A stretch of 64,000 nucleotides of DNA from Dehalococcoidia bacterium (lineage in GTDB: Bacteria; Chloroflexota; Dehalococcoidia; Lucifugimonadales; UBA3495), in NCBI GenBank assembly GCA_022827095.1, contig JAJDTP010000009.1:186001-250000 (forward strand), read 5' to 3'. The notes beneath the pieces are model-generated. The model was not told where the DNA came from and searched no databases. It saw only the letters and a list, made by a program, of their open reading frames with translations. Positions 59,745 to 63,406 of the stretch are shown piece after piece. The position numbers were made by a program, and so were the translations under genes. Each line of letters begins with the position of its first letter. Position 1 is the stretch's first letter.

Positions 59745-60176
59745 GGTGGAACCTCCGGCGGACGGCATTATACGGCACGGGCCGGAGGATTGCGGGTCGG
59801 CAGGGCGCAGGTGAATACCGCTGCCGACCGGAGAAGCGAGGTTTACGTTGCTATGGACAGCCTCCAGGATTTTGATGGCGCAGGCGATGGATTTACGATT
59901 GATGACCAGGTCTCGGAGCGGTTATCAGCCCCACGGCCGGGGGTGTTGCGCTATGCTTTTTGCTCTCATTATCCGTGCCCACGGCACGGCGGGCTGTGGC
60001 GGGCCCGGTGGCCGGGAGACTACCCTGGGTAAGATGATCAGAGACAGTCTCCCATGACGCCGTTTAGCGACTTGGATGCTGATCTGGGTGGCCGTTTTCG
60101 CCCGAGACCTGGTCGGGAAAGGATATCACCTGCGGGACACAGGATAGCACGGACGTTCTGTATGGGTCAAAGGGCA

Positions 60177-60345
60177 TGTCTGAAGCAGGATTTGCCGGAT
60201 TTGGGGATTATCAGGATTGGGTTGGTTGGCGCAGGGGCGGGGGGCGAGATTGCCACGCTGCGCTCGCAATGACAGGAACGGGCGCTCGCAATGACAGGAT
60301 AGGGGCTCGCAATGACAGGGAGGGGCGCTCGCGATGGCATGGGCT
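60177..60345. repeat. Composite repeat with tandem CTCGCAATGACAGG units
   Basis: It starts with GTCTGAAGCAGGATTTGCCG, the half-element of the 39.05 kb repeat. It continues with GAGATTGCCACGCTGCGCTC and GCAATGACAGG of the palindromic family, followed by three more truncated units: CTCGCAATGACAGG twice and the variant CTCGCGATGGCATGG. The two repeat families are fused here. About 700 bases from 59745 to 60484 contain no gene. Confidence 0.8.
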
Positions 60346-60372
60346 GGGGGATATTGCGCACGCATGAGGACG

Positions 60373-60487
60373 GAAATGGAGTGGAAATGAAACTGAAATG
60401 GGCCGGAAATGAAATCCTATTTTTGCTACAATTTGAGCATAAAAATGCGAAATGAACCGGAAACGAAATTGAAATGAGCCGGAAATG
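60373..60487 (+). promoter_or_regulatory. Two arrays of four GAAATG motifs at 11-bp spacing around the fic promoter
   Basis: GAAATG lies at 60373, 60384, 60395 and 60406, and again at 60449, 60460 (GAAACG), 60471 and 60482. Both sets have exactly 11 bases from start to start. Between the arrays a -10-like TACAAT lies at 60427-60432; the expected -35 region falls in the fourth copy. The last copy contains the fic start codon ATG (60485-60487). The spacing puts all sites of each array on the same face of the helix, as expected of a cooperative repressor. The factor is unknown. Confidence 0.7.
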
Positions 60488-61714
60488 ACCTCTGCAAACG
60501 TAAGCCGTTATCTGCGGCCCCAGCGGTGGATACGTTACAACACGGTGGCCGTTATGGACTCTTTGATCGCCGCAAAAACCGCAGCCGGGATTTTACGCGG
60601 ACTGCCGTATCTGCCGCAATGGATCGCGCAAGTCCATGAGGAGCAGCTGCGCCTGGAAGCCGTGGGCACGTCGCGAATAGAAGGCGCGGAGTTCAGCCAG
60701 AGGGAGCAGGACGAAGCGCTGGCCCCCGGATCGGCAACGCGCTACGACTTGACCCACTCGCAGCGGCAGCTCCGGGCGGCCGAGGCTACCTATCGCTGGT
60801 TGCGTTCACGACCTGCTGACCGCCCGGTCAACGACAAGTTCATAATGGACGTCCACCGGCGCTTTGTGACCGGCTGCGATGACGACAATTGTGAACCGGG
60901 CGCGTTGCGGCCGGCGGGCTGGAACGTCACTTTTGGCGCTCCACAATGCCGCGGCGTTGAGGGCGGCAATGATTGTCATGTTGCCTTCGGCGCGCTTTGC
61001 AACGCCGTTGCTGGCGAGTTCAGGCAGTACGACCGTATCATCCAGGCAATGGCGCTTCATTACCATATTGGCGCGATGCACCCTTTTGGCGACGGAAACG
61101 GACGCACTGCTCGCGCGCTTGAGGCTTTTATGCTCCGCCAGGCTGGGGTCAACGAACTGGTTATGGTGAGCCTGTCCAACTACTACTATGAGCACAAAGA
61201 GGAATACTTGGGGGCATTATCTGAATCCAGGAGAGGCGGACATGACCTCACACCATTCCTGATATTCGCCATGTCAGCAGTCGCCCAGCAGTGCGGAACG
61301 GTGTCCAATACAATAATCGACAATCACAAGCGCACCCTGTTTCGGCAATTTGCGGTGGCGCTATTCGGACGGCTGCGCACGCCGCGTCGTCGGGTACTCG
61401 TGGAGCGGCAGTTGGCAGTGCTGGAATCGCTGCTGGAAACAGAGGCATCGGACCCCATCGTATTAATGGATCGAACGGCATCGCACTACAGCATGCTCAA
61501 ATATCCAGGTCGAGCGCAGATAAGGGACCTTATCGACCTATTTGACCTGGGAGCGTTGCAGTTCAGCGACGATGGGATAAAGGTCAACCTGGACTGGCCC
61601 CAGCGGGCTTCCGAATCGGAGTTGATAGAGCGGCTGGAACGGGGAACGTCAGCGGCTTCGACAAATCGTCCCGGGATGGCCAATTTGCAGGATCTGCTCA
61701 ACCGACGCCTTTAG
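60485..61714 (+). CDS. fic: Class II Fic-family protein
   Basis: The product has 409 residues. The Fic motif HPFGDGNGR lies at residues 199-207, matching the AMP-transfer consensus. The inhibitory motif T-x3-E-G occurs at residues 62-67 (TSRIEG), with Glu66 as the blocking residue, so this is class II (intramolecular inhibition). It probably adenylylates a target protein. The C terminus (residues about 340-400) may be a winged helix. The start ATG lies inside the last repeat of the array, so this may be autoregulated. Confidence 0.9.
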   Translation: MTSANVSRYLRPQRWIRYNTVAVMDSLIAAKTAAGILRGLPYLPQWIAQVHEEQLRLEAVGTSRIEGAEFSQREQDEALAPGSATRYDLTHSQRQLRAAEATYRWLRSRPADRPVNDKFIMDVHRRFVTGCDDDNCEPGALRPAGWNVTFGAPQCRGVEGGNDCHVAFGALCNAVAGEFRQYDRIIQAMALHYHIGAMHPFGDGNGRTARALEAFMLRQAGVNELVMVSLSNYYYEHKEEYLGALSESRRGGHDLTPFLIFAMSAVAQQCGTVSNTIIDNHKRTLFRQFAVALFGRLRTPRRRVLVERQLAVLESLLETEASDPIVLMDRTASHYSMLKYPGRAQIRDLIDLFDLGALQFSDDGIKVNLDWPQRASESELIERLERGTSAASTNRPGMANLQDLLNRRL

Positions 61715-61744: not shown

Positions 61745-63406
61745 TCAGACCAGGTTGTTCTGGCGGGCCTGGGTGCGGCGACGGCGGGGGGCCTGGCGGA
61801 AGGTGGCCGGCGCGCCGCCGCGGGGGTAGGAGACGGTCTGGCCGGCGAGGAGTTCGTCGATGGTGAGGATCTGGACGCGGGGGTGCTGCTGGTCAGGGAA
61901 GTGCTCAGGGGTGTAGATGCCGGCGGAGAGGGCCTCCTGGCGCATGGGCTCGGTGGGCGGCTGGAGGGTAATGAACACGCCGAGCTCGGCCTTCTCCCGC
62001 TCCATGTCGCCTTTCAGCGTGGCGATCATGCCCCGGTTGACGTGGCCGCTCTTGACCTGGGCGATGATGCGCTTGGGCTTGCCGCTGTTGTCGTCGAAGA
62101 AGTTGATGTAGCCGTCCACGCCGGCGTCGGCGCCACGGCGACGGTCGTTGGCGGGACGGGCGTCGACGAGGCCCAGGGCCCACCACTCGAACTGGTAGCG
62201 GTCCTGCTCGGCCAGGGCGGCGGCGCTGCGCGAATCGGTGGGCTGGCCGATGATCTCATAGGGGCACAGGGCGTCGCCGAAGCTGTCGTGCAGGCGGTGG
62301 CGGACCAGGGTGATGGCCAGGTGGGTGATGTCGATGCCGATCCAGCGGCGGTTGAGGCGTTCGGCGGCGACGGTGGCGGTGCCGCAGCCGCAGAAGGGGT
62401 CGAGGACGACGTCGCCCTCGTTGCTGCTGGCGTTGATGATGCGTTCCAGCAGGGCTTCGGGCTTCTGGGTGGGGTAGCCGAGGCGTTCTTGAGCGTGCGC
62501 TCCAATCTGCTCGATGTCATCCCATAGGTTTTGAATGGGCATTCCCTTCAATTCGTCGGCAAAGCTTTTCCTACGGAGGCGCCCGTCTCTTTTCTCCGGG
62601 AAATGTATACGCCCTTCACGATCCCATTGCTCCATTTTCTCCTTCGTGATCATCCATCCGTTTCTAGGCGGCGGATAGCCTTTATATTCATAAATCAGAT
62701 TGGGCCGATACGCCGGATTGGTTAGGCTGGTTGCCTGATAACGGCGCCCGTTCTCGTCGACGTGGGTGAAGTATCGCTCAATGTATGCTTGATACTCTGG
62801 CGACTCTTTATTGTATTGCGCTTCGAACAAGGCCGCGTCGGTTTTGGCGTAGAACAAGATAATGTCGGTACAGACGCCAAACCTTACTGATTGGTGAACA
62901 GCACTTGAGAATCCATGCCGTCTTTTCCAAGTGACCTCGTTCCGAAAATTCACTGACCCGAATACCGCATCTAGTAACAGTTTCAAGTAGTGGCTGGCGG
63001 TGGGGTCGCAGTGGAGGTAGATGCTGCCGGTGGGCTTGAGGACGCGGTGGAGCTCGATCATGCGCTGGGCCATCATGGTGAGATAGGCCATCATGTCGTT
63101 CTGGCCGAGGAACTGGCGCAGGGCGGCGAGGAGGCTGGCGACCTTCTCCGGCCCCTGGGTGACCACGTCCTGGAAGGCTATTTCCGACTCCCAGCCCCAG
63201 TGCCAGGTGTCCTCAAAGGCGGTGATCTGGGCGGCGGATTCCTCGCCGGAGCGCTCGCGGAAGAGGACGTTGTAGGTGGCGTTGGAGTTGAAGGGTGGGT
63301 CGAGGTAGATGAGGTCGACGGATTCGTCGTCGACATACTGGCGGAGGATGTCCAGGTTGTCGCCGAAGTAGAGGCGGTTGGGGGCGGTTGCCTGGGTTGA
63401 GGTCAT
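61745..63406 (-). CDS. DNA methylase-Mrr nuclease fusion
   Basis: The product has 553 residues. Motif IV is [12 protein letters not shown] at residues 35-46 and motif [21 protein letters not shown] near 330-345, i.e. the beta-class order. The C-terminal domain has [15 protein letters not shown] near 424-438 and IAQVKSGHV near 444-452, the D...QxK motif of Mrr-type nucleases. It would methylate adenine or cytosine N4 and cut DNA. Residues about 139-299, between the methylase blocks, are much lower in GC than the rest. The start overlaps the stop of the retropepsin-like gene (ATGA). Confidence 0.85.

What the first reader, a model, noticed from the sequence alone, without database searches (positions are those of the whole stretch)
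60373..60487. Helically phased GAAATG arrays flanking the fic promoter
Eight copies of GAAATG (seven exact, one GAAACG) form two arrays of four. Within each array every copy starts exactly 11 bases after the previous one (60373/84/95/406 and 60449/60/71/82). A TACAAT -10 lies between, and the fic start codon is inside the last copy. An 11-base period cannot be coding and suits a cooperative DNA-binding regulator or an RNA signal. I know of no described control element of this type for class II Fic genes.
Basis: partly seen in the sequence, partly recalled or inferred. Interest (0 to 1): 0.8.

Follow-up and report, generated by a model that had tools for sequence, protein, structure and literature searches.

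The report
Conserved repeat operator of a fic gene
A bacterial gene for a toxin-like enzyme (Fic) starts between two rows of short DNA repeats, spaced one helical turn apart, that have travelled with the gene across several bacterial phyla and most likely are where the Fic protein binds to control its own production.

Summary
Two four-copy arrays of GAAATG (seven exact, one GAAACG) with an 11-bp period flank an extended -10 (TGCTACAAT), and the fic ATG lies in the last copy. The true unit is a 7-bp motif, GAAAYGA, plus a 4-bp free linker.

Most of 19 fic orthologs from Chloroflexota, Acidobacteriota, Latescibacterota, Gemmatimonadota, Entotheonella and (weaker) Proteobacteria have the arrays on both sides of the promoter. 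The motif is conserved (82-86%) while linkers and flanks are not. Inter-array distances move in steps of about 10.8 bp. Within the genus the paired motif occurs only at fic or at two sites where fic has been lost. No neighbouring gene is conserved.

The best reading is an operator for the Fic protein itself, bound through its C-terminal winged-helix domain, most likely for autorepression. The claim that no such control is known for class II Fic genes is only partly right: CccR of Yersinia is a class II Fic autorepressor, but with one long-spaced inverted repeat. Binding and the sign of regulation are not shown. A new variant of a known kind.

The parts
60373..60416 (+). Array 1: four 11-bp units GAAAYGA-N4 starting at 60373, 60384, 60395, 60406; the last unit occupies the place of a -35 element (it starts 21 bp before the -10)
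   Evidence: conserved at -112..-79 in orthologs L009 and L010 and at -113..-80 in L054
60424..60432 (+). Extended -10 element TGCTACAAT (inferred promoter; start site predicted near 60439-60441)
   Evidence: L054 and L055 keep a TGn-type -10 at -59 and -57, close to the window's -58; L062 has the weaker TGG-CATGAT at -57; no -35 consensus
60449..60492 (+). Array 2: four 11-bp units starting at 60449, 60460, 60471, 60482; in the presumed 5' untranslated leader, the last unit holding the fic start codon
   Evidence: copies at -36, -25, -14, -3 relative to ATG also in L009, L010, L054, L058
60485..61714 (+). fic: class II Fic protein, 409 aa, inhibitory motif T62-SRIEG67 and catalytic H199-PFGDGNGRTAR, predicted C-terminal winged-helix domain (about residues 300-367)

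Best explanation
The two arrays are a bipartite operator for a DNA-binding protein that recognises GAAAYGA in the major groove, one protein per 11-bp unit and all on one face of the helix, on both sides of the fic promoter. The protein is most likely the Fic protein itself, acting through its C-terminal winged-helix domain. At sufficient concentration it would fill array 1 (covering the -35 position) and array 2 (leader and start codon) cooperatively, possibly closing a small loop over the -10, and shut off its own transcription, so that a potentially toxic AMPylating enzyme stays at a low level. Shown here: the arrays, their conservation, their phasing, their exclusive association with fic and the predicted domain. 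Inferred: that Fic is the binder, and that the effect is repression.
For: (1) Footprint: in pairs with identical spacing (window, L009, L010) the motif is 40-42/49 conserved, linkers 8-16/28, upstream flank 12-22/53; Fisher p 3e-6 to 2e-8. (2) Arrays occur on both sides of the promoter in orthologs of five non-proteobacterial phyla, and as 2+1 copies in three alphaproteobacterial ones. (3) The distance from the last upstream copy to the first downstream copy is 43, 44, 54, 67, 75, 86 or 87 bp, clustered on a 10.5-11 bp lattice: Rayleigh p about 1e-5, about 5e-4 with one value per lineage. (4) Exact pairs GAAAYGA-N4-GAAAYGA in 14 genomes of the genus occur only at fic (4 genomes) or at two fic-less relics, controls 0; in 50 genomes of the family the triple with at most 1 mismatch gives the same six genomes. 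In the G006 relic, arrays, promoter and nine fic-like codons (MTSKIVGRY) remain in front of yqgF; in G007 the array remnant lies beside lysA, where G003 has fic. (5) No neighbour gene is shared across the orthologs, so the only candidate regulator that travels with the arrays is Fic. (6) The C-terminal domain models as a winged helix (pLDDT 80; VIA Z about 8 to winged-helix domains including Zur bound to DNA), and the full-length model aligns end to end with Coxiella Fic2 (8cil, 335 residues, 4.4 A), a DNA-binding Fic (PMC10628234). (7) Precedent: CccR binds and represses its own promoter through its HTH. (8) A sister Fic subfamily (about 30% identical, divergent winged helix) carries a different motif, GGACAWTGWC, on both sides of its own fic promoter in G005, G011, G025 and G035.
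Against: No binding or expression data exist. The fold of the C-terminal domain rests on a model; Foldseek alone found no significant match for it (best E 0.08). A two-fold Fic dimer fits an inverted repeat, as in CccR, more simply than direct repeats, so a tandem or bridging mode must be assumed. Array 1 over an absent -35 would also suit an activator. Orthologs L064 and L066 have no clear arrays, and L055 and the three AT-rich acidobacterial loci have degenerate ones. Most orthologs are metagenome bins.
Confidence: 0.65

Rival explanations
1. The arrays are bound by a host regulator encoded elsewhere, for instance an OmpR/PhoB-type response regulator, whose sites are 7-bp direct repeats with 4-bp spacers and which can replace a -35 element as an activator.
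For: Same 7+4 geometry as the PhoP direct repeats, which also bind in rows of three and four (PMC4832192). The last copy of array 1 starts about 21 bp before the -10 and there is no -35.
Against: A response regulator should have other sites; the paired motif occurs nowhere else in 14 genomes of the genus. The arrays go with fic across phyla and into unrelated gene neighbourhoods. Array 2 lies downstream of the presumed start site.
Confidence: 0.12
2. Array 2 (and perhaps both arrays) acts in the RNA: a binding site for a repressor protein, or a ladder of tiny reading frames. ATGANNNNGAAATGA is a four-codon frame whose TGA overlaps the next ATG, which would itself give an 11-nt period and end at the fic start codon.
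For: The 11-nt period equals a 12-nt frame (four codons) minus the one-base stop-start overlap; the last copy is the fic start codon (sequence).
Against: The T of ATG is C in 9 of 22 non-terminal copies of array 2 and in 12 of 40 of array 1, which breaks the ladder. Array 1 lies upstream of the inferred promoter. The spacing between arrays follows the DNA helix. No RNA structure.
Confidence: 0.06
3. The arrays are a neutral tandem-repeat or mobile-element remnant with no regulatory role.
For: A dispersed repeat (CGCTCGCAATGACAGG, about 64 places) lies just upstream.
Against: The arrays are single-copy and strongly conserved in the motif but not in the linkers, in the same position relative to ATG in distant orthologs.
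Confidence: 0.02
4. Fic binds the arrays but activates rather than represses, or switches from activation (array 1 alone) to repression (both filled).
For: Extended -10 without -35, array 1 in the position of activator sites that replace a -35.
Against: Array 2 between start site and ATG suits a block; the closest characterised relative, CccR, represses.
Confidence: 0.15

Closest known systems
CccR of Yersinia pseudotuberculosis (PMC9755527, PDB 7XUX)
   Same: Class II Fic protein with N-terminal inhibitory helix and C-terminal HTH domain; represses its own promoter by binding at the -35/-10 region
   Different: Operator is one pair of inverted 10-bp repeats AGATAATCAT-N26-ATGATAATCT bound by a dimer; here eight direct 11-bp units in two arrays on either side of the -10, down to the start codon. 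Only 18% aligned identity to the chain 7xux_A.
Coxiella burnetii Fic2 (PMC10628234, PDB 8CIL)
   Same: Same full-length fold with C-terminal winged-helix; binds DNA through it, and DNA binding changes its enzyme activity
   Different: Only random DNA was tested there; no operator described
SoFic / Sofic anti-phage Fic proteins (PDB 3EQX; PMC12249575)
   Same: Class II Fic, similar architecture; PADLOC SoFic profile matches at E 1.2e-37
   Different: Far below the NCBIfam SoFic cut-off (48.8 against 550 bits); DNA binding not demonstrated for SoFic as of PMC10628234; the antitoxin gene AS1 found downstream of Sofic in E. coli H397 has no room here (31 bp to the convergent gene)
OmpR/PhoB-family direct-repeat operators (for example M. 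tuberculosis PhoP, PMC4832192)
   Same: 7-bp motif + 4-bp spacer, tandem winged-helix binding extendable to three or four units
   Different: Different regulator class; Fic has no receiver domain, and the sites here are private to one gene

Membership tests
Class II Fic protein | Catalytic motif HPFx(D/E)GN(G/K)R | tested here: met
   HPFGDGNGR at residues 199-207, every residue but the variable x invariant in 18 orthologs; Pfam Fic E 4e-10
Class II Fic protein | Inhibitory helix motif (S/T)xxxE(G/N) N-terminal to the Fic core | tested here: met
   T62-S-R-I-E66-G67, invariant in 18 orthologs
Class II Fic protein | AMPylation activity | not testable with these tools
   Needs an enzyme assay
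CccR-type autoregulated Fic | C-terminal HTH DNA-binding domain | tested here: met
   By model only: winged helix at about residues 300-367; full-length alignment to 7xux_A over model residues 6-368, rmsd 10.8 A, so domain orientation differs
CccR-type autoregulated Fic | Inverted 10-bp repeat with 26-bp spacer in the promoter | tested here: not met
   No inverted repeat pair in 60000-60560; direct repeats only
CccR-type autoregulated Fic | Binds and represses its own promoter | not testable with these tools
   Inferred from co-inheritance and exclusive association
SoFic (NCBIfam NF046030) | Score above the curated cut-off of 550 bits | tested here: not met
   48.8 bits
OmpR/PhoB-type direct-repeat operator | 7-bp motif repeated head to tail with 4-bp spacers | tested here: met
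   GAAAYGA-N4 in 62 non-terminal copies from 13 loci, selected with at most one mismatch
OmpR/PhoB-type direct-repeat operator | Bound by an OmpR/PhoB response regulator | tested here: inconclusive
   No other sites in 14 genomes of the genus; the gene it controls encodes no such domain in Pfam; binding not testable here

The most novel reading that the evidence does not exclude
The eight-site array is more than a feedback switch: it is the Fic protein's DNA 'antitoxin'. Most Fic molecules are held in a row on their own promoter, where DNA binding sets their AMPylation state (as DNA does for Coxiella Fic2), so that damage to or takeover of the chromosome, for example by a phage, releases or derepresses the enzyme at once. 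Class II Fic genes in general would carry such private operators, each subfamily with its own motif.
Probability: 0.12. Interest if true: 0.82.

Novelty: new variant of a known kind. Interest (0 to 1): 0.6.

Why it matters
Class II Fic enzymes with a winged helix are widespread and some defend against phage, but in the papers found here the DNA that such a domain recognises is known for only one of them (CccR). Here comparative genomics alone gives a precise 7-bp recognition motif, its 11-bp geometry, a portable two-sided operator and at least one sister subfamily with another motif. That makes 'do Fic proteins control their own genes, and does DNA control their activity' directly testable, and it gives a way to find operators for other Fic subfamilies.

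Tried and rejected
Recent slippage or mobile repeat: rejected, single copy in the genome, linkers diverged, motif conserved. Known RNA element: none above Rfam gathering score; the only hit, Flavo-1 at 18.6 bits against a cut-off of 42 (E 0.53), is probably chance. RNA hairpin: folding no better than shuffles. Stop-start mini-ORF ladder: considered because ATGANNNNGAAATGA gives a four-codon frame of the right length, disfavoured because ATG is freely ACG in non-terminal copies. Co-encoded regulator: no shared neighbour. Viral or plasmid spread: no close ortholog in viral contigs or plasmids (best about 25% identity); 45 viral contigs hold the three-copy pattern but none encodes a relative of this Fic, and three of them repeat it at 33-bp steps. 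Phage DNA similarity: none. Foldseek with the C-terminal domain alone: no significant match.

Full report
Observation. Array 1 is GAAATGGAGTG GAAATGAAACT GAAATGGGCCG GAAATGAAATC (60373-60416) and array 2 is GAAATGAACCG GAAACGAAATT GAAATGAGCCG GAAATGACCTC (60449-60492). The fic ATG is at 60485, inside the last copy. No other 6-mer in 64 kb repeats four times at any period from 7 to 24; local shuffles gave none in 20,000. The arrays are unique in the 3.79-Mb genome. Between them lies an extended -10, TGCTACAAT, with no -35 consensus.

What the unit is. Copies within the window agree in the first seven bases (90%) but not in the last four (36%). Over 62 non-terminal copies from 13 loci, selected with at most one mismatch, positions 1-7 read G-A-A-A-(T/C)-G-A, while the four linker positions are loose, with a weak leaning to A/G, A/C, C/T, G/T. 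T or C is free at position 5 in both arrays except in the last copy, where T is needed for the start codon.

Conservation. A protein search of one genome per species found 17 loci that encode a relative, and searches of relatives added G002 and G010, giving 19 orthologs besides the window (41-86% identical). They come from Chloroflexota, Acidobacteriota, Latescibacterota, Gemmatimonadota, Entotheonella and Proteobacteria; several are whole chromosomes. Upstream of the start codon, arrays of GAAAYGA at 11-bp steps lie on both sides of an AT-richer core in the window, L054, L056, L058, L059, L062, L063, L069, L070, L009 and L010. L055 is degenerate. In L057, L060 and L061 the motif has drifted towards AAAATGA, the period still being visible in L057. 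L065, L067 and L068 keep two upstream and one downstream copy. L064 and L066 show no clear arrays. In pairs with equal spacing the motif bases are conserved 82-86%, linkers 29-57%, and the flank upstream of array 1 23-42%: a sharp footprint. The tree separates the proteobacterial set from the rest with full support, and within the rest the phyla are not cleanly ordered, as expected for horizontal spread; 350 other genomes drawn from the phylum hold no close ortholog.

Phasing across the promoter. The distance from the last copy of array 1 to the first copy of array 2 is 43, 44, 43, 43, 54, 54, 54, 54, 43, 54, 67, 86, 87 and 75 bp (read). These values cluster at multiples of about 10.8 bp (Rayleigh p about 1e-5; about 5e-4 with one value per lineage; periods of 8-9.5 bp give nothing). 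From the last array-1 copy to the start-codon copy the values fall at 65-66, 76-77 and 86-89. Related sequences are not independent, so the p values are indicative. The two arrays appear to stay on the same face of the helix, which argues for protein bound to DNA on both sides at once.

Exclusive link to fic. In 14 genomes of the genus the exact pair GAAAYGA-N4-GAAAYGA occurs only in front of fic (G000, G002, G004, G010) and at two further sites, with reversed-pattern controls all zero. In 50 genomes of the family the triple with at most one mismatch gives the same six genomes. The two further sites are relics. In G006 the whole bipartite element stands in front of yqgF and is followed by nine codons, MTSKIVGRY, that match the Fic N-terminus (window: MTSANVSRY) before the frame is lost. 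In G007 a three-copy remnant lies beside lysA, at the place where G003 has fic. No neighbouring gene is shared by the orthologs apart from close syntenic groups. The only candidate binder that travels with the arrays is therefore the Fic protein.

The protein. It has the class II inhibitory motif TSRIEG and the catalytic motif HPFGDGNGR. A model from 18 orthologs (pLDDT 85) shows the Fic core and a C-terminal domain; this domain modelled alone (pLDDT 80) aligns with winged-helix domains at Z about 8, including Fur-family regulators and Zur bound to DNA, though Foldseek alone gave nothing significant. The full-length model aligns over 335 residues, 4.4 A, with Coxiella Fic2, whose HTH binds DNA (PMC10628234). 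The presumed recognition helix (residues 341-355) has A344, R347 and D348 invariant across the orthologs.

Comparison with the known. CccR of Yersinia is a class II Fic protein that binds its own promoter with its C-terminal HTH and represses itself (PMC9755527). Its operator, AGATAATCAT-N26-ATGATAATCT, is a single inverted pair; no inverted pair was found here. The 7+4 geometry is that of OmpR/PhoB-type tandem operators, which can extend to four units (PMC4832192); this is a likeness of geometry, not membership.

Generality. Fic paralogs in related genomes have other repeated motifs at their promoters. Five members of one sister subfamily carry GGACATTGACC-like sites on both sides of the -10, and a pattern for that two-sided layout (GGACAWTGWC) finds the fic loci of G005, G011, G025 and G035, the other hits being mostly tandem repeats. 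As a group, upstream regions of Fic genes are richer in repeats than those of other genes in the same loci (p 1e-5; this includes the array-bearing orthologs and duplicate loci, so it is only indicative). The winged helices of the sister subfamily are quite different, which fits a motif set by the protein.

Verdict. The best explanation is an autoregulatory operator of the Fic protein, probably repressive. Binding by Fic and the sign of regulation remain to be tested.

Noticed in passing
window 60260-60336: Three to four tandem copies of a 22-bp unit containing CGCTCGCAATGACAGG, a dispersed element found at about 64 places in the genome, directly upstream of the arrays.
   Followed up: partly
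window 61745-63406 (-): DNA methyltransferase (N6/N4) fused to an Mrr/NA-iREase-like domain, convergent with fic; a related ORF lies near fic in the alphaproteobacterial locus L067.
   Followed up: no
L147 (own genome, G000:C14:241900-243600): A second class II fic gene with its own repeated TGTAA/TTACA sites upstream; similar sites in front of related fic genes L022, L025 and L029.
   Followed up: partly
L011, L012, L013, L014, L016, upstream of fic: A sister Fic subfamily has GGACATTGACC/TGTCC sites on both sides of the -10: a different motif in the same layout.
   Followed up: partly
L148 (G006:C36:16500-20000): fic deleted but its bipartite operator, promoter and nine codons left directly in front of yqgF (Holliday-junction resolvase homolog).
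   Followed up: partly
G057:C1 (several places): Dispersed multicopy repeat GAAATGGCCGCGAAATGCCCGCAAAATC in a genome of the same order, similar in period; not at fic.
   Followed up: no
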